A model generated the notes under the pieces. The model searched no databases. It was not told the DNA's origin and worked only from the letters and a program-made list of their open reading frames with translations. From contig NZ_WJIE01000001.1 in assembly GCF_009649845.1 (NCBI RefSeq), positions 558,001-622,000 of the forward strand: a stretch of 64,000 bases of DNA. The letters are read 5' to 3'. This stretch comes from Polyangium spumosum (GTDB lineage: Bacteria; Myxococcota_A; Polyangia; Polyangiales; Polyangiaceae). Positions 2,901 through 42,067 of this stretch are shown here, piece by piece. Made by a program: the position numbers and the translations under genes. The first letter of the stretch is position 1, and each line of letters starts with the position of its first letter.

Positions 2901-3926
2901 ATGGCGAGCCCGCGTTCGATCGAGGTCAAGGTCGGCATCCTGATCCTCACGGCCACCGTTCTCCTCGCTGGGTTCATCCTCGTCATGGGCGGCATCAACT
3001 TCCAGCCCACGTATGCCCTCTTCATCGACTTCGACAACCCCGGCGGCCTGCAGAGCGGCGCGCCCGTGAAGATCGCCAGCGTCAAGGTCGGGAAGATCAC
3101 GGAGATCCAGTTCCGAGGCGGCGAGGCGCCCGGGGCGACGGGCAAACGGGAGCCACTCGTGCGGGTGAAGGCCGAGATCGAGAAGCGCTACCAGCCGAGC
3201 ATCCGGGACAACGCGGTCTTTTACGTGACCTCGTCGAGCGTGCTCGGCGAGCAGTTCCTCGCGCTCGATCCGGGCTCGGGGGATCGGCCGGTGCTCGCGG
3301 AGAACGCGATCGTGCGGGGCCTCGATCCGCCGCGGCTCGACATGCTGATCGCCAAGGCCTACGACCTGCTCGACACCACGGTCACGGCGCTCTCCGGCAA
3401 CAAGGACGAGATCGGCACGGCGCTGAACGGCCTGTCGCGCACGCTGAAGGGCACCGGCGATTTCTTCGACAAGAACGGCGAGCGGCTCGATCGCATCGCG
3501 GCGAACGTCGAGCAGATCACGGTGGACACGCAGGACACCGTGCAAGAGGCGAAGAAGAAGTACGTCGAGAACCCGCAGATCGATCGCATCCTCGCGAACG
3601 TGGACAAGACGACGGGCGCGCTCGCGCAAGACGCGCCGCCCTTGCTCACGGACGCGAGGGCCACGCTCGCCAACGTCAAGCGCGTGAGCGAGACCGTCGG
3701 GGGCGAGGGCGAGCAGGCGAAGATCCGGCAGGCGATCGGCGACCTCGCCGAGATCGCGCGGAACACGAAGGGCATCACCCAGGACGCGCAGGCGATCGCG
3801 TCGAGCGTGCGTCGCGGCAAGGGGACGGTGGGCGCGCTCGTGATGGACGAGCAGCTCTACGACGACCTCCAGGAGCTCGTGCGCGACCTCAAGCACAACC
3901 CCTGGAAGTTCTTCTGGCGCGAGTAG
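2901..3926 (+). CDS. mlaD: MCE/MlaD-family lipid-binding protein
   Basis: This periplasmic MCE protein is anchored by one N-terminal helix (ILILTATVLLAGFILVMGG). The MCE domain follows at about residues 35-120 (FIDFDNPGGLQSGAPVKIASVKVG), and a long helical C-terminal region runs to residue 341, which in the family builds a lipid-conducting needle or barrel. I chose the ATG at 2901 over a GTG at 2886 because the helix and charged start MASPRSIEVKVG match homologues. It is transcribed divergently from mlaF and is the expected substrate-binding subunit for the MlaE permeases upstream. Confidence 0.9.
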   Translation: MASPRSIEVKVGILILTATVLLAGFILVMGGINFQPTYALFIDFDNPGGLQSGAPVKIASVKVGKITEIQFRGGEAPGATGKREPLVRVKAEIEKRYQPSIRDNAVFYVTSSSVLGEQFLALDPGSGDRPVLAENAIVRGLDPPRLDMLIAKAYDLLDTTVTALSGNKDEIGTALNGLSRTLKGTGDFFDKNGERLDRIAANVEQITVDTQDTVQEAKKKYVENPQIDRILANVDKTTGALAQDAPPLLTDARATLANVKRVSETVGGEGEQAKIRQAIGDLAEIARNTKGITQDAQAIASSVRRGKGTVGALVMDEQLYDDLQELVRDLKHNPWKFFWRE

Positions 3927-3951
3927 GGGGTTCGGGGGCGCAGCCCGCGGC

Positions 3952-4167
3952 TCATTCGAACTCGAAGAGCGGCTCGCCTTCCTTCACGGCCTTGCCCTCC
4001 TCCGTGAGGATCTTCGTGATGGTGCCCTCGTCCTCGGCCTCGACGGGCATCTCCATCTTCATCGACTCGAGGATCGCGACGGTGGTCCCTTCCTCGACCT
4101 TGTCGCCGACCTTGACCTCGATCTTCCAGACGTTGCCCGTGATATGCGCCTTGATGACCTTTGCCAT
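3952..4167 (-). CDS. Stand-alone biotin/lipoyl carrier protein
   Basis: This is a 71-residue single-domain carrier. The sequence ESMKMEMPVEA contains the biotinylation motif MKM, with the target lysine at about residue 37, between the two beta-hammerhead halves. Such proteins carry the carboxybiotin arm of acyl-CoA or pyruvate-type carboxylases; the partner carboxylase is not in the window. The gene converges on mlaD with 25 bp between stops. It could accept lipoate instead, but MKM favours biotin. Confidence 0.88.
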   Translation of the reverse strand: MAKVIKAHITGNVWKIEVKVGDKVEEGTTVAILESMKMEMPVEAEDEGTITKILTEEGKAVKEGEPLFEFE

Positions 4168-4538
4168 GGGGCGGCGACGCTAGCGGAGGTCCGTCTGGAT
4201 GGGAAGCGAGGACGAACGGCGCCCTGCGTGGGTACCACCTCCCGGGGCCGCGGCTGATCCCGGAAACGGCGCGACAGTCAAGCGAGAAAACGCCGATTGG
4301 GGGCCTCCGGCACGGTGTTCACCCGTCTTCCGGGACGAAATTCGTGGGCGGGGCGGGGTGCGGGAGAAGAATCGACTCCACCCAATTGACAGGCATCTTC
4401 GGGAGTTGATACCGACAGGCGCCGCGGTACTCTCACATTGGCGGGTGTCCTCGGAAAGGTTCGATCGTGCTGCAGAAGCACGGCGGTCCTCCCCCGGGGC
4501 GAACGGCGAGCGCGCTGCTTTCGAAGGAGCCACGACGC
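4168..4538. other. Divergent intergenic region (371 bp)
   Basis: This stretch separates the start of the biotin-carrier gene (minus) from the start of the coiled-coil gene (plus). I find no convincing coding sequence; open frames here lack codon bias and initiation signals. It holds one good sigma70-like promoter facing right (listed separately) and a ribosome binding site, GAAGGAG, just before 4539. Confidence 0.6.
4386..4413 (+). promoter_or_regulatory. Putative sigma70-like promoter
   Basis: A perfect -35 hexamer TTGACA (4386-4391) is followed after 16 bp by GATACC (4408-4413), which keeps the central ATA of the -10 consensus. It points toward the coiled-coil gene starting at 4539. Myxobacterial promoters vary, so this is a prediction. 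Confidence 0.4.
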
Positions 4539-5294
4539 ATGTCCGAACAGAAGGAAAGCTCGGTCCTGTTCTCCCTCAAGGAGCTCATGAACCTCGAGGA
4601 GGACCGTATCAAGCAGGAGGAGGATGCGAAGGCCGCCGCAGCGGCCGCCGCAGAACGAGCCCGGCTCGACGAGGAGCGCCGGAAGCGCGAGGAAGAAGAA
4701 GCGCGCATCCGGGCCGAGGAAGAGCGCAGGGCCATGGAGGAGCGCAAGGCTCGCGAGGAAGCCGCGCGCCTCGAGGCGATCCGTCAAGCCGAGGTCGAGA
4801 AGGCCCGCGTCGAGGCCGAGCAGAGGGCGCGCCTCGAGGCGATGAACGCCCAGCAGCAGCACGAGCGCAAGCTCGCCGAGCTGCAGCACGACGAGTCGAA
4901 GAAGAAGCTGCGCAAGACGCTGTACGGCGTGGTCGCGGCGGTCGTCGTGATCGGCGGCGCAGCGACGTACTTCATCGTCGACCAGAGCCAGAAGGCCGAG
5001 CAAGAGCGCCTTGCGGCTGCCGAGCAGACCCGGCAACTGGAAGAAGAGAAGAAGAAGATCGAGCAGCAGGCCAAGGAGTCGCAGGCGAAAATCGACAGCC
5101 TGCTCAGCCAGCTCACGAGCGCGAAGGACGAGGCGACGCGCCTCGCCCTGCAGAAGCAGCTCGACGAAGAGAAGGCGAAGCAGGACGCAGCGAAGAAGGC
5201 CGGCGGCGGCGGTGGTCCTCGCCCCGCGGGCGGCGGCGGCGCGGCCAAGCCCTGCAACTGCGCCCCCGGCGATCCGCTCTGCTCCTGCCTCTGA
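4539..5294 (+). CDS. Coiled-coil, single-pass membrane protein with Cys-rich C-terminus
   Basis: I do not recognise a named family. The 251-residue protein starts MSEQKESS behind a good GAAGGAG site; an upstream ATG at 4467 is less likely. Residues about 20-125 form a very charged Glu/Arg/Ala coiled coil. One membrane helix follows (VVAAVVVIGGAATYFIV), then a second coiled coil of about 70 residues and a Gly/Pro linker. The protein ends in a compact cysteine cluster, CNCAPGDPLCSCL. The architecture suggests a membrane-anchored scaffold whose Cys tail could bind metal or form disulfides. Confidence 0.8.
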   Translation: MSEQKESSVLFSLKELMNLEEDRIKQEEDAKAAAAAAAERARLDEERRKREEEEARIRAEEERRAMEERKAREEAARLEAIRQAEVEKARVEAEQRARLEAMNAQQQHERKLAELQHDESKKKLRKTLYGVVAAVVVIGGAATYFIVDQSQKAEQERLAAAEQTRQLEEEKKKIEQQAKESQAKIDSLLSQLTSAKDEATRLALQKQLDEEKAKQDAAKKAGGGGGPRPAGGGGAAKPCNCAPGDPLCSCL

Positions 5295-5364
5295 TCCAGC
5301 CGAGCGGCCCGCGACGACACGCACCCTACGCGGGCCGCCGTTTGCATCCCTTCGATGCAGACGC

Positions 5365-6171
5365 ATGAAGCCCAAGGCCCCCGAGACGGCCCCGGACCTC
5401 CCGTCCGATGGCCCCCTTCCCCCCCTCGATGACCTCGACACACCCCCGATGAACGAAGCGACGAGGCGGCTCGTCTTCCCGCTCGACTACGGCTCGCTCG
5501 AAGAGGCGCGCGCCGGCGCGCGTGTCGTCGCGCCGTCGGTCGGCGTCCTCAAGGTGGGGCTCGAGCTCTTCGTGCGCGAAGGGCCGGCCGCGATCGCGGC
5601 GTGCCACGATCTCGGCCGCGAGGTCTTCCTCGACCTGAAGCTGCACGACATCCCGGAGACCGTGGGCCGCGCCGTGCAGAGCGCCGCTTCGCTCGGCGTC
5701 CGGTACTTGACCGTGCACGCGCACGGCGGCCGCGTGATGCTCGAGCGCGCAGCCAGCGAGGCCGCACGCGCGAGCTCGCCGCTCACGATCCTCGCGGTGA
5801 CCGTGTTGACCTCGCTCGACGGCGCGGATCTCGCCTCGCTGGGTTTGTCGACGTCGCCCGCAGAGCAAGCCGAGCGGGTCGCGCGGCTCGCGTGGGACGC
5901 GGGTGTGCGAGGGTTCGTCGCGTCCGCGTCGGAGGCGGCGAACCTCAGGAGCGCGCTCGGCCCCGAGGCGCTGCTCGTCACGCCGGGGATCCGACCGGCA
6001 GGCAGCGACGCGGGGGATCAGAAAAGAATCACGACGCCGGCGCAGGCGATCGCAGCGGGAGCGGATCTGCTCGTGGTCGGGCGGCCGATCCGCGACGCGA
6101 AGGATCCGCTCGCCGCCGCGCGAGCCATCGTCGCCGAGATCGAGGGCGCGCTCGCCGCGCGACACACATGA
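5365..6171 (+). CDS. pyrF: Orotidine 5'-phosphate decarboxylase
   Basis: PyrF makes UMP from OMP in pyrimidine synthesis. The catalytic motif DLKLHDIP lies near residue 90, preceded by FPLDY (first substrate Asp) and followed by TVHAHGG and the C-terminal phosphate-binding GITPG-type region (VTPGIRP). The start is uncertain: ATG 5365 gives a Pro/Asp-rich 28-residue extension, while ATG 5449 (MNEATRRLVFPLDY) gives a normal-length 240-residue enzyme. Neither has a clear ribosome binding site. The stop overlaps the rlmB start as ATGA, so the two genes are translationally coupled. Confidence 0.92.
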   Translation: MKPKAPETAPDLPSDGPLPPLDDLDTPPMNEATRRLVFPLDYGSLEEARAGARVVAPSVGVLKVGLELFVREGPAAIAACHDLGREVFLDLKLHDIPETVGRAVQSAASLGVRYLTVHAHGGRVMLERAASEAARASSPLTILAVTVLTSLDGADLASLGLSTSPAEQAERVARLAWDAGVRGFVASASEAANLRSALGPEALLVTPGIRPAGSDAGDQKRITTPAQAIAAGADLLVVGRPIRDAKDPLAAARAIVAEIEGALAARHT

Positions 6172-6893
6172 GTCGACTCGTTTACGGACTCCAGCCCGTC
6201 CGCGAAGCCGTGCGCGTGCACGGCGACGCCCTCGAACGCGTGGTCGTCGAGCAAGGCAGTAACCCCAAGATCCAGGCCGTCGGGCGCTTCGCCGAGGGTC
6301 GCGGCGTCCGCGTCGAGACGGCGCCGCGCGCCGAGCTCGATCGTCGCACCGGCGGCGGCAGGCACCAGGGCGTGCTCGCCGTCGCGCCGGATCTGCGGAT
6401 CCTCCGCGTGGACGCCCTCCCGATCGAGCCCACCTCCATCGTCGTCGTGCTCGACGGCATCATGGATCCGCAGAACTTCGGGGCGATCGTGCGCAGCGCC
6501 GTCGCGCTCGGGGCCACGGGGATCGTCTGGCCCGAGCACAGCTCCGCGCCGCTCTCGCCGGCGACGTTCCGCGCGTCGGCGGGCGCGATCGAGCACGCCA
6601 CGCTCTGCCGCGTCTCGTCCTTGCCGGAGGCCCTGCGATCCCTCGCGGATCGTGGCGTCGCGGTGATCGCGCTCGACGCGCAGGGGCCGACGACGCTCGG
6701 CGGGATCGATCTACGCGGGCCCGTGGCGATCGTGATCGGCGCCGAGGACAAGGGCGCCCGCAAGGCCGTGCTCCGCGCCTGCCAGCACATCGCGCGTCTG
6801 CCGATGGCAGGGCCGATCGGCTCGCTCAACGCCTCGGTCGCGGGCGCGCTCGCGCTCTACGAGGTCCTCCGCCAGCGGCAGGTGCCCGCCTGA
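6168..6893 (+). CDS. rlmB: 23S rRNA 2'-O-methyltransferase, TrmH/RlmB type
   Basis: This SPOUT-fold methyltransferase is predicted to methylate 23S rRNA guanosine (RlmB) or a related site. The 241-residue protein has the N-terminal substrate-binding start VYGLQPVREAV and the SPOUT motifs DGIMDPQNFGAIVRSA, VIGAEDKGARKAV and the knot-closing SLNASVAGALALYE. ATG 6168 overlaps the pyrF stop. The exact target nucleotide cannot be read from sequence; TrmH-family tRNA methylation is the main alternative. Confidence 0.92.
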   Translation: MSRLVYGLQPVREAVRVHGDALERVVVEQGSNPKIQAVGRFAEGRGVRVETAPRAELDRRTGGGRHQGVLAVAPDLRILRVDALPIEPTSIVVVLDGIMDPQNFGAIVRSAVALGATGIVWPEHSSAPLSPATFRASAGAIEHATLCRVSSLPEALRSLADRGVAVIALDAQGPTTLGGIDLRGPVAIVIGAEDKGARKAVLRACQHIARLPMAGPIGSLNASVAGALALYEVLRQRQVPA

Positions 6894-35093: not shown

Positions 35094-36536
35094 ATGATGG
35101 GTCGATCAGGGCTTCTCGGCGGAAGCATGATGAACGGCAACGAAGATCACGACGTCCCCCTTGCCGTGGGGACGTCCGTGGGCGGATACGTGGTCGACAG
35201 GCTCGTGGCGCGTGGCGGTTGCGGCTCGGTGTACCGCGCGCATGCGGCGGGTCGCGCCGAACCCGTGGCCATCAAGGTCCTGCACCCGACGCTCGCGCCG
35301 CTGCCGAAGATGATCGAACGCTTCGTCCGGGAGGTCGAGCTCCTCCGGCGTATCCGTCACCCGAACATCGTCGAGATCAAAGAGGTCGGCGCGCTCCCCT
35401 GCGGCACTCCCTTCTTCGTGATGGAGTATCTCCCCGGCGTCACGCTCGACGTCTTGCTCTCGATGCGCGGTCGCCTCGGCCCTGAAGAGGCGCTGGAGAT
35501 CCTCGAGCCCGTTTGCGCCGCGCTCGGCGCCGCGCACGCCGCGGGCATCGTCCACCGCGACGTCAAGGCGAGCAACGTGATGGCGACGGGCGGCCTCGGA
35601 GGTGTGAAGCTCCTGGATTTTGGCATCGCGAAGCTCGTCGATCCGGGCACGTCGAGCGCGGGTTTGACCTCGGTGAATCGTCAGATCGGCACGCTGACGA
35701 TCATGGCGCCCGAGCAGCTCCTCTGCGCGCCGGTCGACGCGCGCACCGACGTCTACGCGCTCGGCGCGCTCCTTTATCGGCTGCTCACGGGGCGCTTGCC
35801 GTTCGAGTCCTCGTTCCCTGGCGAGCTCGTGCGCAAGCACCTCGAGGAGCCTGCGCCGCGCCCGAGCGAGCGAGTCCCCGTCTCGCGCGAGATCGACGCG
35901 GTCGTCTTGAAGTGCCTCGAAAAGCGGCCCGAGCGTCGTTACGAGTCGGTGCACGCGCTCGTGCGGGCGCTGCGCCACGCGACCTCGGCGGGCACGTTCC
36001 GCGCGTCGTCGCACCAGCTCCCGCGCTTCGCGGTGGGGGTATTCATCGAGATCCGGCTGCGCGCGGACGCCGAGGACGCGCCCGAGCTCTTTGCCAGCGA
36101 GATCGAGCGGATCCTCGCGACCGCGGAGGATCGGCTGCGCGCGGCGGGTTACACGCTCTGCACGAGCACGAGCGCCGAGGTGCTCGGCCTCCGGCTCTTG
36201 CCGCGGGATCCTGCGCGCTGGCAGGACGAACGCCAGGCGGCGCTCGATTTCGCGCTCGACCTTCACGGGGCGCTCGCGTCGCGGAGCGGCTCGGATCCGC
36301 GTGTGCACGTGAACGTGTCGGCGCACGCGGGTGAGGTCGTGGTGCGGGAGCGAATCGACGCCGATCCGGAGATCGTCGGCGGCCCGCTCGCGCGCACGGG
36401 GGACTGGGCGTCGTCCGAGGAGACGCCGAACCTCTGCGCGACGTGGGAGCTGCTCGACGGCCTCGGCGGCTTCGAAGCGGCGCCCGGCCCCGATCCGCTC
36501 GTGCTCGTGAGCCGCAGCGCGGCCAGCGCGGCCTGA
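35094..36536 (+). CDS. Ser/Thr kinase with degenerate cyclase-homology domain
   Basis: This 480-residue kinase has ARGGCGSVYRA, VAIKVLH, HRDVKASNVM, LDFGIAK and GTLTIMAPEQ in order at about residues 30-290. The C-terminal 170 residues (FAVGVFIEIRLRADAED ... VHVNVSAHAGEVVVRE ... GGPLARTGDWA) resemble a class III nucleotidyl cyclase fold without the metal-binding aspartates, so they probably regulate rather than catalyse. Starts at 35094, 35127 and 35130 are all possible. It is divergent from the giant kinase, which carries a similar insert. No membrane anchor is visible. Confidence 0.9.
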   Translation: MMGRSGLLGGSMMNGNEDHDVPLAVGTSVGGYVVDRLVARGGCGSVYRAHAAGRAEPVAIKVLHPTLAPLPKMIERFVREVELLRRIRHPNIVEIKEVGALPCGTPFFVMEYLPGVTLDVLLSMRGRLGPEEALEILEPVCAALGAAHAAGIVHRDVKASNVMATGGLGGVKLLDFGIAKLVDPGTSSAGLTSVNRQIGTLTIMAPEQLLCAPVDARTDVYALGALLYRLLTGRLPFESSFPGELVRKHLEEPAPRPSERVPVSREIDAVVLKCLEKRPERRYESVHALVRALRHATSAGTFRASSHQLPRFAVGVFIEIRLRADAEDAPELFASEIERILATAEDRLRAAGYTLCTSTSAEVLGLRLLPRDPARWQDERQAALDFALDLHGALASRSGSDPRVHVNVSAHAGEVVVRERIDADPEIVGGPLARTGDWASSEETPNLCATWELLDGLGGFEAAPGPDPLVLVSRSAASAA

Positions 36537-36567: not shown

Positions 36568-36617
36568 TGCGTTCGATTCCCCCGCCAATTCCATTCCCAT
36601 TTCGGTGTCGCCGCCCT

Positions 36618-36644
36618 CGAGCGTCGAATATCGCTCGACGCTCG
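36618..36644. other. Ten-base-pair perfect hairpin
   Basis: CGAGCGTCGA (36618-36627) and TCGACGCTCG (36635-36644) form a perfect stem around a 7-nt loop. It follows the hairpin at 36547 and marks the border where the sequence turns A+T-rich. It could reinforce termination or be a protein-binding dyad. Confidence 0.5.
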
Positions 36645-36785
36645 CGCGCACCATTGCGACACCAAACCAAATATTCCATGACAAACCAACAACTCGACCC
36701 CGAACATCTCAAAGGTTTTACATGAAACACGTTTTACATGACAATATATTTATAATGATTGCACCAAGACACGATGCGTCAAAAC

Positions 36786-37210: not shown

Positions 37211-37717
37211 ATGGCCGGACTCGGCTGGCTGCACCTCAGCGATCTACACGTCGGGACCACCGGCACCCTGTGGCAACGGCCTCAGTACCGGGAGGAGATC
37301 GAGCGGGACCTCGTCTGGCTCCGCGACCGCGTAGGAGCCTTTGACGTGATTCTCGTTGCCGGCGACCTCGCCGCGACTGGAACTGAGACCGAGTACGGCG
37401 TCGTCACGGAAGTGCTCGCGTCTCTCCAGGATTTCCTCGCTCGGCTGGGCCCCCGCCCGGCGCTACTCGCGGTCCCCGGCAACCACGACCTCGTCCGCGC
37501 CGCGGCAGGCGTGGCACCGAAACCGGCCACCTGGGAGACGAAGCGCGAGGTGTTCTTCGAGGACCATAAGCATCCCTTCCGGCGAGCCGTAACCGCCGCG
37601 TTCACCCCGTTCCTCCAATGGATCGAGAGGTGGCACCGTGAACGACCGGGGAACGTTGAGGTCGCTCTCCGGAAGGGCCTTCTACCTGGTGATTTTGTTG
37701 CCACCATAACAAAATAA
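37211..37717 (+). CDS. N-terminal metallophosphoesterase half of a giant Roc protein, ended by in-frame TAA
   Basis: This 168-residue segment starts MAGLGWLHLSDLHVG; GGGAG upstream favours this ATG over the one at 37175. It carries the first metal-binding motifs of a calcineurin-like phosphoesterase: SDLH, VAGDLAATG and VPGNHDLV. The domain's remaining motif (SHHPPD) lies in the next open frame, which continues in the SAME reading frame after a TAA at 37715-37717. The truncated product alone would lack metal ligands. Codons just before the stop (ATA ACA AAA) are rare for this genome. Confidence 0.75.
   Translation: MAGLGWLHLSDLHVGTTGTLWQRPQYREEIERDLVWLRDRVGAFDVILVAGDLAATGTETEYGVVTEVLASLQDFLARLGPRPALLAVPGNHDLVRAAAGVAPKPATWETKREVFFEDHKHPFRRAVTAAFTPFLQWIERWHRERPGNVEVALRKGLLPGDFVATITK
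37692..37717 (+). other. In-frame stop codon joined to an A+T-rich hairpin
   Basis: ATTTTGTT (37692-37699) and AACAAAAT (37708-37715) form a perfect 8-bp stem with loop GCCACCAT. The last base of the stem is the T of the TAA stop. The frame resumes at once as GRRYGVAGLNTAF and stays open for 1,449 codons. Loss of this single codon would give a continuous protein of about 1,618 residues. Confidence 0.85.
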
Positions 37718-37732
37718 GGGCGCCGCTACGGC

Positions 37733-40700
37733 GTGGCGGGCTTGAACACGGCCTTTCTCAACCTTTCCGTGGATGGGTACAGCGACCACGACGTGGATCC
37801 GCGCCAACTCGAAGTCGTTGCGGGAGATCTCGACCCCTGGGCAATGAGCCATGATGCATGCATCTTGCTTTCGCACCATCCACCGGACGCGTTTTCCCCT
37901 GCGGCTCGCGAGCGATTTTACCAATCAATCGCCTCCCAGGCCCGGTTTGCCTTCCATCTCACCGGAAGCGCAAGCGCCCACGCGCCCCTGATCGGCGGAG
38001 GTGCAACCCCATTTTTAACGACTCATTCTTTCGCAGGTCCAGGGAATTTTCGTTCCCTGCACGGATATGCTGCCGGACGCATTGCTCTCGACGAGGGATG
38101 CAAAGGTGGAATCATCACAGTATGGCCGCGCGTACTCGTTCGTACTGCGCATCGCGACGAGTTTAGATCCGAGCCAATGTGGCCGCGGTTAAAGGATGGC
38201 GCCATCGAGCGCACCTTTGTCCCTCTCCGGCCGGCGGAGGCCGACGATTCCAAGGCGGACGAAGCCTCCGCATTGACGAGTATCGCAGACTCTGCCCCAG
38301 CGCTCGAAGCAATACCGATGGCGCCGCCCGCACCCAAGCCGATCAAATCGAAAAACGAGGCTGCGCCTCCAGCTCCGGCCCCCCCGCAATCCCGCGCCGC
38401 CCCCATCGCCGCATTCGCCCCCTCGGCCGCCCCCGCGCGCGCTCCCGCTCCCGCCTCCGCTCCCGAAAACCGCCAGACCCACCTCACCCTCCTCCGCTCC
38501 TTGCCCATCGACCGCGGCCCCCTCGCCCGCGTCCGCTTCTCCTCCGCCGGCGACGCACTCGCCGCCATTACATTCTGGGGCAAGATCCACTGCTGGGACG
38601 CCTCCACGCAATCGATGCGCTGGGTCGCGCGCGCGGGCTCCGACGCGATGGACCTCTGCTTCTCCCCCGACGGCCGCCGCCTCGCCACGCGCGCCGGGAC
38701 AAACCTCACCGTCTGGGATGCCTCGAACGGCGAACCCCTCCGCACCCTGCACGAAATCGCCGGCACGAGCCTCGCCTGGTCCCCCGAGAACATCCTCGCC
38801 GTCGGCCAGCCCGACGGGAAGATCCTCTTCCTCGACGCCGACGGGCTCGCGCCCCTCGGCCACCTCGATCATGGCTTCTGCCCCGAAGGCATCTTCGCCC
38901 TCACATTCTCCTCCGACGGCGAGTTCCTCCTCTCCGGCGGCAAAGGCGACGGGCTCGTCGCCATTTCGACGATCCCTGCCGGCACCTTGCCGCAGAATGG
39001 CTTCACCCGCGCCGCGCCCTTCCACCGCGGCTCCGTCCTCGATTTCTCCTTCCGGCCCCGCGCGCCCCACGTCGCCTCCGCCGCCGACGACGGCACCATC
39101 GCCGTCTGGAGCCTCGTCGACGGCGCGTTCCTCGCCAAACTCGAGGGCCATACGACCGCCGTCACGAGCCTCTCCTTCTCGCATGATGGCCGCGTCCTCG
39201 CGTCCCGCTCCCGCGACGGCCTCGTCCTCCTCTGGCGCACGGATACCTGGGAGCCGGCCGCCCGATTGCGATCCGCCACGAATTACCTCGCCGGCGCCGT
39301 CTTCGCCCCCGACGCGCCCTGGCTCGCCGTTCCCTCGCCCACCGGCAGCCTCGCCCTCTTCACCGTCGATATCGACGCCCTCTACGACCACTCCCCCGCC
39401 TCCACCACCCTCCACACCACCACCGCCAAGGTCGTCCTCCTCGGCGAGGGCCGCGCCGGCAAGAGCTGCCTCGCCCTCCGCCTCGCCGAGGATCGTTACG
39501 AGGAGCAACCCTCCACCCACGGCATGCGATTCTGGTCGATCGCGGACGCGCGCCTGCCCCGCGAGGCGCCTGTCCCGAAAAACCATCGCCGTGAGCTCGT
39601 CGTCTGGGATCTCGGCGGCCAGGACGAATATCGCCTCGTCCACCCGCTCTTCTTGCGCGACGCCTCCCTCGCCCTGCTCGTCTTCGAGCCCGGCCGCGGC
39701 AAGGCCGCCGAGAATGAAATCGTCGCCTGGAACGACCACCTCGGCGAGCGCGACGAGCAGGGCGGGGCACCGCGGCGATTGCTCGTCGGCACCAAGCTCG
39801 ACGAGATCGATCGCGCCCCCGAGGATCGCGCCTCGGCCGATCGCCTCCGCGCCCGCACCGGCGCCCTCGCCTACCTGCCCACGAGCGCCCGCACGGGCCG
39901 GGGCATTGTCGATCTGAAGAGCGCCCTCCTCGGCGCCATCGATTGGTCCTCCCTCGGCCGCACCAGCCGCCCCGCCCTCTTCGAGCGCATTCGCGCGCAC
40001 GTCGAGCGCGCCCGCAAGGCCGGCCGCGCCGTGCTCACCCTGCTCGAGCTCGAGGCCAGCGTGGCCGGAGACGAGACCGACGCCGAGCTCGCAGCCGCCA
40101 TCCCCGCCGTCGCCTCCCAGCTCGCCCGCCAGGGCCTCGTCGCCGACATTCGTTTGTCCGATGGAACCCGCGCCCTCGTCCTCGAGGTCGAGCAGATCGC
40201 CCGGTATGCCGGATCCTTGATCCTCCTCGCCCGCGACAACCCCCACGGCGTCCCTGCGCTCGCCATTGCCACGCTCTTCGGCCCCGCCGCGCGATTCCCG
40301 CGAATTCCACCGGGCGAGCGCCTCCGCAAGGATCAGGAGCTCGGCGTCCTCGACGCCGTCATCGCGCTCTTGATCGAGCAAGGGACGTGTTTCCTCCACG
40401 AGGGGCTCCTCGTCTTCCCCGCCCTGTTTCCGGCCCCCGACGCGGCCGATCCCGCCGCTGCGCCTTCCCTCCCGGCAGCGATTCGTTATGAAATGAGCCG
40501 CCCCGCCTCCGAGGTCTACGCCTCCGTCGCCTCCGCGCTCGCCCTCGGGCGACGCTTCGGCCCTGCGCGCCTCGGCCCCGGACGCGCCGATTTCGGTGTC
40601 CCGGGCGAAGGTTTGTCGCGGGTATCCATTTCTCGATCTCCGGCCGGCAAGGCGCGCGGGGGGCTCGAGCTCGCGTTCTCGCCGGACACGCCCGACGAGG

Positions 40701-42067
40701 TCCGGCGGCTCTTCGCGGGGTTTCTGGAGGATCACCTGAAGCAGCGCGGCGTCCAGTTCGTCGAGCGCGCCTCCGTGCGCTGCGTCTGCGGATACGTCCT
40801 GCCCGAGGACACCGTCAAGAGCCGCCTCGTCGGCGGCCACTCCGACATCGGCTGTCCCGAATGCGACACGCGCACCCCGCTCGTGCCGCGGACCGAGGGC
40901 GAGGACGCGCTCGCCGCGCCCATCTTCGCCCTGCGCCGCGAGGCCGAGCGCCGGCGCGAGGAGAGCGTCGAGGCCGCGCGAATGGCCATGGCCGTGGCGC
41001 GAATCACCGCAGGCAATCCCCCCGCGCCCATTCGAATCCTGCACCTCAGCGACCTGCACCTCCACGAGGGCGACGATCCCGAGGTTTTGCTCCAGCCCTT
41101 GCTCACGGATCTGCGCGACCGCGTGGAGGGGCTCGCCCTGGAGAAGCTCGACTTCGTGGTCGTCTCCGGCGACCTCTCGAGCCGCGCGAGCCCCGGCGAG
41201 CTCGAGGCCGCGCGCCATTTCCTCTCGCGCCTCGCCGAGGCGATGGGCCTCACGGCCGACCGCTGCATCGTCGTGCCCGGCAACCACGACCTCGACTGGG
41301 ACACCGAGGTCTACGATTTCAAGAAAAAACGCGGCCTGGATCCGAAGCGCCTCCTTTCGGGCAGCTTCGTCGAGCAAGAGAGCGGCTACCTCGTTCGCGA
41401 CGACGCGCGTTACCCCGAGCGATTCCGCAATTTTTCGCGGCACCTCTACCACCCGCTCTGCCTGCGCGAATACCCGATGAGCGCCGAGGAGCAAGGGACC
41501 GCCCTGCTCTTTTCGGCCGAGCGGATCCAGTTCCTCTGCTTGAACTCGGCCTTCGAGGTCGACGAATACCACCGCGGCCGCTCGGGCATCCACCCGGGCG
41601 CCCTCTCCCGCGCGCTCGCCGAGGCCGATCGGCAGATCGGCGACGCGCGCAGGCGCGGTGATCTCGAGGAAGACGCCTCCGTGTTACGGCTCGTCGTCTT
41701 CCACCACCCGGTGACGGGCAATGAAAAGATCGTGGAGGACGCCTTCCTCGACCAGCTACGCCGCGCCGACGTCCGGGCCGTCCTGCACGGCCACGTCCAC
41801 GAGGATCGCGCCGCGCTCCTCTATCACCTCGACCCGGTGCGGAAAGTCCACGTCATCGGCGCCGGCAGCTTCGGCGCGCCCGCGGATCACCGCCCTCCGT
41901 CCGTGCCGCGGCTCTACAATCTGATCACGATCCCGCGGGATCACGGGCGGATGCGCGTGGACACGCGCGCTTTGCGCAAGGAAGGCGGCGCGTGGGAGGC
42001 CTCTTGCACGTGGCCGGGCGAAACACCCGGCGAGAAGCGCGCCCATTACGAGGTGCGCTGGGGCTGA
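37733..42067 (+). CDS. WD40 - Roc GTPase - zinc ribbon - metallophosphoesterase protein (continuation)
   Basis: The frame is open from 37718; GTG 37733 is the first usable start but has no ribosome binding site. Counting from 37733: residues 1-150 finish the first phosphoesterase (LLSHHPPD), with a degenerate final GSASAH; 180-245 are a Pro/Ala linker; 250-550 are WD40 repeats (FSPDGRRLAT); 570-578 GEGRAGKSC, 626-630 DLGGQ and GTKLDEID define a Roc GTPase, followed by a COR-like region; CVCGY ... CPEC near 1017 is a zinc ribbon; 1103-1440 is a complete second phosphoesterase (HLSDLH, SGDLSS, PGNHDLDWD, FHHPVTG, HGHVHED). G+C rises sharply near 38340, inside the gene. Confidence 0.85.
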   Translation: MAGLNTAFLNLSVDGYSDHDVDPRQLEVVAGDLDPWAMSHDACILLSHHPPDAFSPAARERFYQSIASQARFAFHLTGSASAHAPLIGGGATPFLTTHSFAGPGNFRSLHGYAAGRIALDEGCKGGIITVWPRVLVRTAHRDEFRSEPMWPRLKDGAIERTFVPLRPAEADDSKADEASALTSIADSAPALEAIPMAPPAPKPIKSKNEAAPPAPAPPQSRAAPIAAFAPSAAPARAPAPASAPENRQTHLTLLRSLPIDRGPLARVRFSSAGDALAAITFWGKIHCWDASTQSMRWVARAGSDAMDLCFSPDGRRLATRAGTNLTVWDASNGEPLRTLHEIAGTSLAWSPENILAVGQPDGKILFLDADGLAPLGHLDHGFCPEGIFALTFSSDGEFLLSGGKGDGLVAISTIPAGTLPQNGFTRAAPFHRGSVLDFSFRPRAPHVASAADDGTIAVWSLVDGAFLAKLEGHTTAVTSLSFSHDGRVLASRSRDGLVLLWRTDTWEPAARLRSATNYLAGAVFAPDAPWLAVPSPTGSLALFTVDIDALYDHSPASTTLHTTTAKVVLLGEGRAGKSCLALRLAEDRYEEQPSTHGMRFWSIADARLPREAPVPKNHRRELVVWDLGGQDEYRLVHPLFLRDASLALLVFEPGRGKAAENEIVAWNDHLGERDEQGGAPRRLLVGTKLDEIDRAPEDRASADRLRARTGALAYLPTSARTGRGIVDLKSALLGAIDWSSLGRTSRPALFERIRAHVERARKAGRAVLTLLELEASVAGDETDAELAAAIPAVASQLARQGLVADIRLSDGTRALVLEVEQIARYAGSLILLARDNPHGVPALAIATLFGPAARFPRIPPGERLRKDQELGVLDAVIALLIEQGTCFLHEGLLVFPALFPAPDAADPAAAPSLPAAIRYEMSRPASEVYASVASALALGRRFGPARLGPGRADFGVPGEGLSRVSISRSPAGKARGGLELAFSPDTPDEVRRLFAGFLEDHLKQRGVQFVERASVRCVCGYVLPEDTVKSRLVGGHSDIGCPECDTRTPLVPRTEGEDALAAPIFALRREAERRREESVEAARMAMAVARITAGNPPAPIRILHLSDLHLHEGDDPEVLLQPLLTDLRDRVEGLALEKLDFVVVSGDLSSRASPGELEAARHFLSRLAEAMGLTADRCIVVPGNHDLDWDTEVYDFKKKRGLDPKRLLSGSFVEQESGYLVRDDARYPERFRNFSRHLYHPLCLREYPMSAEEQGTALLFSAERIQFLCLNSAFEVDEYHRGRSGIHPGALSRALAEADRQIGDARRRGDLEEDASVLRLVVFHHPVTGNEKIVEDAFLDQLRRADVRAVLHGHVHEDRAALLYHLDPVRKVHVIGAGSFGAPADHRPPSVPRLYNLITIPRDHGRMRVDTRALRKEGGAWEASCTWPGETPGEKRAHYEVRWG

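What the first reader, a model, noticed from the sequence alone, without database searches (positions are those of the whole stretch)
37211..42067. Giant phosphoesterase-WD40-Roc-Zn ribbon-phosphoesterase protein interrupted by one in-frame TAA
The two open frames are in the same phase and are separated only by TAA at 37715-37717. The stop lies inside the first metallophosphoesterase domain: GNHD is before it and SHHPPD after it, so neither half alone can make that domain. The following 1,449 codons are intact, which is hard to reconcile with an old pseudogene. Explanations are a very recent nonsense mutation, a sequencing error, or regulated readthrough. Two nucleotide-cleaving phosphoesterase domains around a Roc GTPase and WD40 sensor fit the logic of STAND-like conflict systems of multicellular bacteria, but I know of no described system with this exact order.
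Basis: partly seen in the sequence, partly recalled or inferred. Interest (0 to 1): 0.82.

Follow-up and report, generated by a model that had tools for sequence, protein, structure and literature searches.

The report
Roco immune-like protein with stray stop
A giant soil-bacterium protein that looks like an immune switch carries one private stop codon, probably a fresh mutation or a base-call error, in a domain that is enzymatically dead in the relatives examined and that close relatives appear to swap around.

Summary
The TAA at 37715-37717 is real in this assembly: one in-frame stop, 1,449 open codons after it. It is private to this genome among the sequences examined. Five same-genus orthologues, two more distant full-length relatives and six other MPE1-like proteins all have a sense residue there (13 of 13), and it falls on a variable beta-hairpin turn. 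It is most likely a very recent nonsense mutation or a base-call error. Nothing found supports programmed readthrough.

The protein is MPE1-WD40-Roc-COR-Zn ribbon-MPE2. COR was recognised by fold. The order is found in 8 genomes of two classes. MPE1 is the divergent part of the gene, and its tree conflicts with the rest, which suggests allele exchange. The WD40-Roc-COR-Zn chassis elsewhere carries TIR, PNP, cyclase, CHAT, DUF4365 or MPE domains. This fits a variant of the described AP-GTPase-COR conflict systems, with WD40 in place of leucine-rich repeats. Function is inferred, not shown.

The parts
37211..37714 (+). MPE1 front half (DLH, GDL, GNHD), 168 codons from the conserved ATG
   Evidence: Pfam Metallophos 2.9e-8; ATG at the same place in 5 orthologues
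37715..37717 (+). private in-frame TAA, on the beta-hairpin turn K-x-G
   Evidence: turn 172-173 between strands 165-171 and 174-181 in the L058 model
37718..38224 (+). MPE1 back half (SHHPP kept; GHxH replaced by GSAS)
   Evidence: GC3 0.61 against 0.74-0.88 in orthologues
37733..37735 (+). GTG, first possible restart codon after the stop, AAGG in the 20 bases upstream; hypothetical
38225..38485 (+). Pro/Ala-rich linker
   Evidence: low identity in alignment
38486..39385 (+). WD40 propeller
   Evidence: Pfam WD40 6.6e-20
39386..39940 (+). Roc GTPase (GEGRAGKS, DLGGQ, TKLD, TSA)
   Evidence: Pfam Roc 3e-17; motif positions
39941..40777 (+). COR domain
   Evidence: Foldseek 3dpt_B E 2.6e-8 for the COR-ZnR-MPE2 model; no Pfam hit at E<=0.01
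40778..41026 (+). zinc ribbon (CxC...CxxC) plus helix
   Evidence: the four Cys columns are invariant in 6 of 6 chassis sequences
41027..42064 (+). MPE2, phosphoesterase with all motifs (DLH, GDL, GNHD, HHP, GHVH)
   Evidence: Pfam 1.9e-13; NCBIfam DS9_1 3.7e-25, below cut-off; motifs

Best explanation
The gene encodes a Roco-type (Roc-COR) intracellular switch protein that works like a STAND immune receptor. A propeller and a fast-changing, catalytically dead N-terminal phosphoesterase-like domain (MPE1) sense or dock a ligand. GTP binding by Roc with COR-mediated dimerisation sets the state. The C-terminal phosphoesterase MPE2 is the effector, probably cleaving a nucleotide or nucleic acid phosphodiester when switched on. 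In the window's strain this intact design is broken by one very recent, lineage-private nonsense codon in the dead MPE1 domain (or by a base-call error), not by programmed readthrough. If the stop is real, full-length protein is lost, and at best a restart downstream gives an MPE1-less WD40-Roc-COR-MPE2 form, a layout that a Nostoc plasmid homologue has naturally. Shown: layout, motifs, conservation, privacy of the stop among the sequences examined. Inferred: GTP switching, sensing by MPE1/WD40, activity and substrate of MPE2, immune role, fate of the truncated product.
For: Stop absent in all 13 relatives aligned over the position. No other stop in 4.85 kb, and six neighbouring window genes align without a break to at least four of five genomes (the one break is in G086's kinase, not in the window). 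If the downstream frame had been neutral since the stop, and with an assumed indel rate of one tenth of substitutions, about three further lesions are expected by 0.0055 substitutions/site, or by 0.025-0.031 counting stops only, against dS 0.67-1.2 to relatives in WD40 and COR. MPE1 GHxH missing in 8 of 8 and present in 6 of 6 other MPE1-like proteins; MPE2 motifs intact in 9 of 9. Chassis with interchangeable TIR, PNP, cyclase-TIR, CHAT, DUF4365, MPE. COR fold. Metallophosphatases DS-8 and DS-9A, to which MPE2 is related, defend E. coli against phage and need their catalytic residues (PMC13092281, passages read).
Against: No read data, so error and mutation cannot be told apart. No biochemical or phage data on any member. 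The locus is syntenic over about 19 kb in six species, unlike a typical mobile defence island. Of six neighbours, two are protein kinases that match PADLOC PD-T4-6 kinase models (the adjacent one at 5.6e-120 over nearly the whole model); these are general Ser/Thr kinases and myxobacteria have many (recalled), so I give this little weight; the other four have no PADLOC match. The back half of MPE1 in the window departs from columns invariant in the others at 17 of 73, more than any other sequence (L058 6 of 62), and has low GC3, which could mean longer relaxation than 'very recent'; but the front half does not (6 of 93), and the window is also the most deviant sequence in WD40, Roc, COR and MPE2. 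Sensing by MPE1 rests on variability alone; variability is not clearly concentrated on the former catalytic face (0.39 against 0.29 opposite and 0.35 in helices/strands).
Confidence: 0.72

Rival explanations
1. Assembly or base-call error (one branch of the best explanation, set apart here): the organism has a sense codon at 37715 and makes the full-length protein.
For: Single substitution-type lesion in a gene otherwise like its five orthologues; one orthologue has GAA at this place, one substitution away from TAA.
Against: The six neighbouring genes show no lesion in the window, so error density is low. It is a substitution, not an indel like that in G086.
Confidence: 0.25
2. Split gene by translational restart: the 168-aa fragment ends at TAA and ribosomes restart at GTG 37733, so the two parts are made separately and may even reassemble at the hairpin turn, or the WD40-Roc-COR-MPE2 part works alone.
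For: GTG after five further codons; AAGG upstream of it; stop sits on a turn that tolerates change; Nostoc homologue has no MPE1.
Against: Start codons and AAGG are common by chance; none of the 13 relatives has this split; the restart would begin inside a beta-strand. The back half shows no signature specific to selection as a new N-terminus.
Confidence: 0.1
3. Regulated stop-codon readthrough or recoding.
For: Long intact frame downstream.
Against: 13 of 13 relatives have sense residues; none of the six neighbouring genes ends in TAA, so nothing hints at a special role for it; TAA followed by G is, as recalled, an efficient terminator; no tRNA gene in the window (the rest of the genome was not scanned for suppressors).
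Confidence: 0.02
4. MPE1 is simply a degenerating leftover under relaxed constraint, so the stop is one step in its loss.
For: GHxH lost in 8 of 8, more motifs lost in G103 and G434; low GC3 in the window copy; 17 of 73 invariant columns broken after the stop.
Against: The domain is kept in frame in 7 of 7 other copies; where dS is not saturated, dN/dS is 0.09-0.20, so it is under purifying selection; L059 and L060 share a nearly identical MPE1.
Confidence: 0.25

Closest known systems
AP-GTPase (Roc)-COR conflict systems of PMC8195603 (2021; section 15 read)
   Same: Roc plus COR switch, N-terminal repeat sensor, C-terminal position occupied by many interchangeable effectors (TIR among them).
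   Different: There the sensor is leucine-rich repeats; here WD40. Here there is also an extra N-terminal module (dead MPE, or TIR in a paralogue). Phosphoesterase is not named as an effector in the section I read; the figure and source data listing all 24 domains were not available.
GAP1-N1 GTPase-centred and MoxR-vWA ternary conflict systems (PMC7159879, passages read)
   Same: Calcineurin-type phosphoesterase, PNPase and TIR as variable effectors; inactive enzyme domains in effector position, proposed decoys or dominant negatives.
   Different: Multi-gene systems; here one polypeptide with a Roc-COR core.
DS-9A and DS-8 anti-phage metallophosphatases (PMC13092281, passages read; NCBIfam NF053862, NF053861)
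   Same: MPE2 is related (DS9_1: E 3.7e-25, 88.7 bits).
   Different: Far below the family cut-offs (420 and 790 bits); DS-8 is fused to NACHT and DS-9A pairs with a HAD gene; this protein has Roc instead, and Pfam shows no HAD in the six neighbours scanned, one of which has no Pfam match.
Roco protein of Chlorobium tepidum and related Roc-COR structures (3dpt, 3dpu, 6hlu)
   Same: Roc and COR domains in tandem.
   Different: LRR (6hlu title) rather than WD40; no phosphoesterase domains, as recalled.

Membership tests
Roco (Roc-COR) proteins | Roc GTPase with P-loop, DxxG, NKxD-type motifs | tested here: met
   Pfam Roc in 6 of 6 chassis members; motifs in the window
Roco (Roc-COR) proteins | COR domain directly after Roc | tested here: met
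   Foldseek 3dpt/3dpu/6hlu E 2.6e-8 to 8.9e-5; note that Pfam found nothing at E<=0.01 and the model is moderate (pLDDT 68); the COR match was not among the 50 rows of the VIA-align look, which the phosphoesterase end filled
[quoted passage not shown]
   WD40 propeller instead (best 25 of 40 Pfam families seen); the fast-evolving part is MPE1, not the repeats
AP-GTPase-COR conflict systems (PMC8195603) | interchangeable C-terminal effector | tested here: met
   MPE, PNP, cyclase-TIR, TIR, MPE-CHAT, DUF4365 after the same chassis
DS-9A / DS-8 anti-phage metallophosphatases | full-length family score above curated cut-off | tested here: not met
   88.7 of 420 bits and 45.1 of 790 bits
DS-9A / DS-8 anti-phage metallophosphatases | catalytic phosphoesterase motifs needed for defence | tested here: met
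   MPE2 motifs intact in 9 of 9; defence itself not testable here
Active calcineurin-like phosphoesterase (applied to MPE1) | complete metal-ligand motif set including GHxH | tested here: not met
   missing in 8 of 8 giant-protein MPE1 copies; motif set recalled from general knowledge
Programmed stop-codon readthrough | stop conserved among homologues | tested here: not met
   0 of 13 relatives have a stop at the position
Old pseudogene | multiple lesions, loss of coding constraint | tested here: not met
   one lesion in 4.85 kb; WD40-MPE2 GC3 and identity like orthologues
Anti-phage defence system | protection against phage | not testable with these tools
   needs infection assay

The most novel reading that the evidence does not exclude
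MPE1 is an integrated decoy: a phosphoesterase that lost its metal site and became the hypervariable, recombining recognition domain of a Roco-type receptor whose other end carries the living phosphoesterase. Invader factors that attack or mimic phosphoesterase effectors bind the dead copy and trigger the live one. Species exchange MPE1 alleles, as hosts do with receptor recognition domains, and the window's stop is one freshly broken allele.
Probability: 0.2. Interest if true: 0.75.

Novelty: new variant of a known kind. Interest (0 to 1): 0.42.

Why it matters
The stop itself is a small matter. The gene gives a clean case of a conflict-type Roco protein with a dead enzyme at one end and the same enzyme class apparently alive at the other, where the dead copy is the part that varies between species. 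That makes the proposed decoy role of inactive enzyme domains (PMC7159879, passages read) testable by simple domain swaps. The chassis with TIR/PNP, cyclase-TIR, CHAT and MPE partners also links Roc-COR switches, the core of LRRK2 and DAPK relatives, to nucleotide-acting effectors.

Tried and rejected
Readthrough: looked for a conserved stop (13 relatives, none), a tRNA gene in the window (none), special use of TAA in neighbours (none of six ends in TAA); rejected. A paper search on Polyangium, stop codon and readthrough (any two terms, 2,270 papers) was seen as a listing of six, none of which mentions Polyangium; nothing was read.

Whole-gene decay: G086 has a frame break at the start of MPE2, which at first looked like a second decaying copy. 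The site has one C fewer than L059 in a short run of C, MPE2 is intact in the next frame, and the neighbouring kinase of the same assembly is also split into two frames. I read both as assembly indels and do not count it as decay; reads would be needed to be sure.

Relaxed selection in the window's MPE1: pairwise dN/dS in the front half is not raised (0.09-0.14 for the four window pairs against 0.10-0.19 for the other pairs whose dS is estimable); in the back half dS is saturated in all four window pairs, so the test is void there (11 of 15 pairs were run). Leave-one-out violations and GC3 hint at drift after the stop but are not decisive.

Variation on the former catalytic face of MPE1: mostly negative. 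Repeats upstream of the gene: none found. Sequence search of COR-ZnR-MPE2 against PDB chains: no hit at E<=0.01. GC3 of the P450 used a wrong start and is void. An in-frame stop that I first saw in the L057 P450 match lies three residues from the end of the aligned stretch and is probably the gene's own terminal stop. Paper searches with no hits; one search listed seven papers, none read. Loci L114 and L115 were fetched and not analysed; L111-L113 carry only parts of the chassis and were left out of the layout count.
Full report
OBSERVATION. The frame from ATG 37211 to TGA 42067 contains exactly one internal stop, TAA at 37715-37717, with 168 codons before and 1,449 after. Pfam places Metallophos before the stop, then a WD40 propeller, Roc, and a second Metallophos at the end. 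The window lies in genome G000, 10.76 Mb in 61 contigs.

THE STOP IS PRIVATE. Five same-genus genomes carry the gene at the same place, with about 19 kb syntenic. All five read through the position with a sense codon: GAA, AAC, GAC, GAC, GGC. Two more distant full-length relatives (G103, G434) and six other MPE1-like proteins, the next-best matches at E <= 2e-16, also have residues there: 13 of 13 non-window sequences are sense. In an AlphaFold2 model of the Polyangium 6x1 MPE1 (pLDDT 84) the residue is 172, the first of a two-residue turn between strands 165-171 and 174-181. A stop here hits a turn where the residue is free to vary, which may be chance: 70 of 338 MPE1 codons, the TAA itself included, are one step from a stop.

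AGE. No second stop exists in the frame, and the six neighbouring window genes align without a break in the window to their counterparts. If the whole downstream frame had evolved neutrally since the stop, three further stops are expected by 0.025-0.031 substitutions per site, and three lesions of any kind by about 0.0055 if indels occur at a tenth of the substitution rate, which is an assumption. dS to relatives is 0.67-1.2 in WD40 and COR. So the stop is very young, or an error, or the downstream part is still made and selected. Signals of drift in the window's MPE1 are mixed. GC3 is 0.76 before the stop (orthologues 0.78-0.90) and 0.61 after it (0.74-0.88), while the WD40-to-MPE2 part is close to theirs. 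Columns invariant in the others are broken at 17 of 73 after the stop but only 6 of 93 before it (L058: 6 of 62 and 9 of 96). dN/dS before the stop is not raised, and after it dS is saturated in all four window pairs run.

MPE1 LOOKS LIKE A DEAD ENZYME DOMAIN. Against the usual ligand motifs of this superfamily (recalled: DxH, GD, GNH, H, GHxH), MPE1 of the giant protein lacks GHxH in 8 of 8: GSAS, GSVD, GSLR, GSSR, GSLS, GSLN in the six same-genus copies, GHGR in G103, nothing recognisable in G434. GNHD is GNND in one copy, GNKD in two, GGHD in G103 and GFGD in G434; DLH is DLR or DLQ in G103 and G434. Three copies, the window's among them, keep GNHD, so the loss is of the metal set as a whole, not of every motif. 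The six other MPE1-like proteins keep GHxH and GNHD, 6 of 6. MPE2 keeps its motifs in 9 of 9, including the Nostoc homologue (with DIH for DLH) and the G086 copy in its shifted frame.

MPE1 IS THE VARIABLE PART. Protein identity among the six same-genus copies is 47-98% in MPE1 and 83-99% in WD40, Roc, COR and ZnR. Along 10.6 kb the MPE1 segment (37.2-38.4 kb), with the noncoding stretch before it, is the low-identity zone, except in the pair L059-L060, whose MPE1 is 0.90-0.98 identical. The MPE1 tree and the WD40-to-ZnR tree reject each other (AU p 4e-5 and 0.0022). At fourfold sites 14 of 15 pairs are more diverged in MPE1 than in the core, but L059-L060 go the other way (14 of 217 against 61 of 539, p 0.044). 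I read this as allele exchange of MPE1 by recombination. Saturation and weak support in the core tree (54 and 74) are cautions. dN/dS of 0.09-0.20 where dS is not saturated means the domain is still constrained.

THE CHASSIS. The part after Roc has no Pfam match at E <= 0.01, but the model of COR-ZnR-MPE2 matches the COR domain of a Roco protein (3dpt_B, E 2.6e-8) and, at the C-terminal end, cyclic-nucleotide phosphodiesterase Rv0805 and chain B of the YydD-YydB model 9a6c (VIA-align Z 16.6 with rmsd 3.5 over 219 residues for 2hyp, and Z 20.8 with rmsd 4.4 over 278 for 9a6c_B). That model is only moderate (pLDDT 68, pTM 0.48). A profile of Roc-COR-ZnR found 10 of 317 genomes of the class (one of these a 125-residue fragment, G123) and 7 of 377 of a phylum sample, of which four are also in the class set. 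tblastn with the Nostoc chassis found 2 of 72,556 plasmid records at E <= 1e-10, the Nostoc source and a Calothrix plasmid. Full MPE1...MPE2 layout: six same-genus genomes, G103 and G434, i.e. 8 genomes in two classes (WD40 of G434). Other partners: TIR...PNP in a paralogue of Polyangium y55x31; cyclase-TIR in G110; TIR-WD40 and DUF4365 in G148, in two overlapping frames; TIR on the Calothrix plasmid; MPE-CHAT on the conjugative Nostoc plasmid beside NACHT genes. G541 and G516 have COR-ZnR followed by TIR (the G516 TIR score is under Pfam's cut-off).

SURROUNDINGS. Neighbours by Pfam are two protein kinases, an unassigned protein, a beta-helix protein, a P450 and a transpeptidase-domain protein. 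Both kinases match PADLOC kinase models PD-T4-6, the adjacent one (35094-36536) at 5.6e-120 over nearly the whole model; the other four have no match. The adjacent kinase is 94-96% identical in the five genomes. Kinases of this kind are common in myxobacteria (recalled), so I do not build on it, but a functional link is not excluded.

HOW IT PROBABLY WORKS. Inference from these families: WD40 and MPE1 sense, Roc-COR switches and dimerises, MPE2 cleaves a phosphodiester. Metallophosphatases in DS-8 and DS-9, to which MPE2 is related, protect E. coli from phage and need their catalytic residues (PMC13092281, passages read). Calcineurin-type phosphoesterases, PNPase and TIR are listed as interchangeable effectors, and inactive enzyme domains as possible decoys, in PMC7159879 (passages). 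AP-GTPase-COR proteins with variable C-terminal effectors are described in PMC8195603 (section read), with leucine-rich repeats as sensor. I saw no WD40 version and no dead MPE at the N-terminus in what I read; the paper searches were made, and figures and supplements were not available, so they may show it.

VERDICT. The stop is most likely a very recent private nonsense mutation or an error; readthrough is very unlikely. The gene is a new variant of a known kind of conflict protein. The most interesting part is the dead, exchanged MPE1.

Noticed in passing
L089:5109-9794:- (G087:C42): Paralogue with TIR-WD40-Roc-COR-ZnR-PNP in one 1,562-aa frame; in one of the six same-genus genomes at E<=1e-30.
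   Followed up: partly
L055:5992-10323:+ (Nostoc sp. C057 plasmid, WP_256874761.1): WD40-Roc-COR-ZnR-MPE-CHAT protein on a conjugative plasmid next to NACHT, HEAT-repeat and transposase genes.
   Followed up: partly
window 35094-36536: The same-strand kinase just upstream matches the PADLOC PD-T4-6 model PDLC04041 at 5.6e-120 over nearly its whole length and is 94-96% identical in five related genomes; possible partner or ordinary kinase.
   Followed up: no
L091:3311-6819:+ (G148:C339): TIR-WD40 frame (3311-4945) overlaps a Roc-COR-ZnR-DUF4365 frame (4498-6819): frameshift, overlap of two genes, or assembly indel.
   Followed up: no
L060 (G086:C1:7497000-7516000): Two adjacent genes (kinase and giant protein) each show a frame break in this two-contig genome; looks like assembly indels.
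   Followed up: partly
L090:2947-6657:+ (G110:C136): WD40-Roc-COR-ZnR followed by a nucleotide cyclase and a TIR domain in one frame, as if signal maker and effector were fused.
   Followed up: no
window 36612-36649: A 38-bp piece of the intergenic region upstream of the gene recurs at 89% in G000:C3:731264-731300.
   Followed up: no
G000 whole genome: This genome is 10.76 Mb against 12.4-13.4 Mb in the other five of its genus.
   Followed up: no
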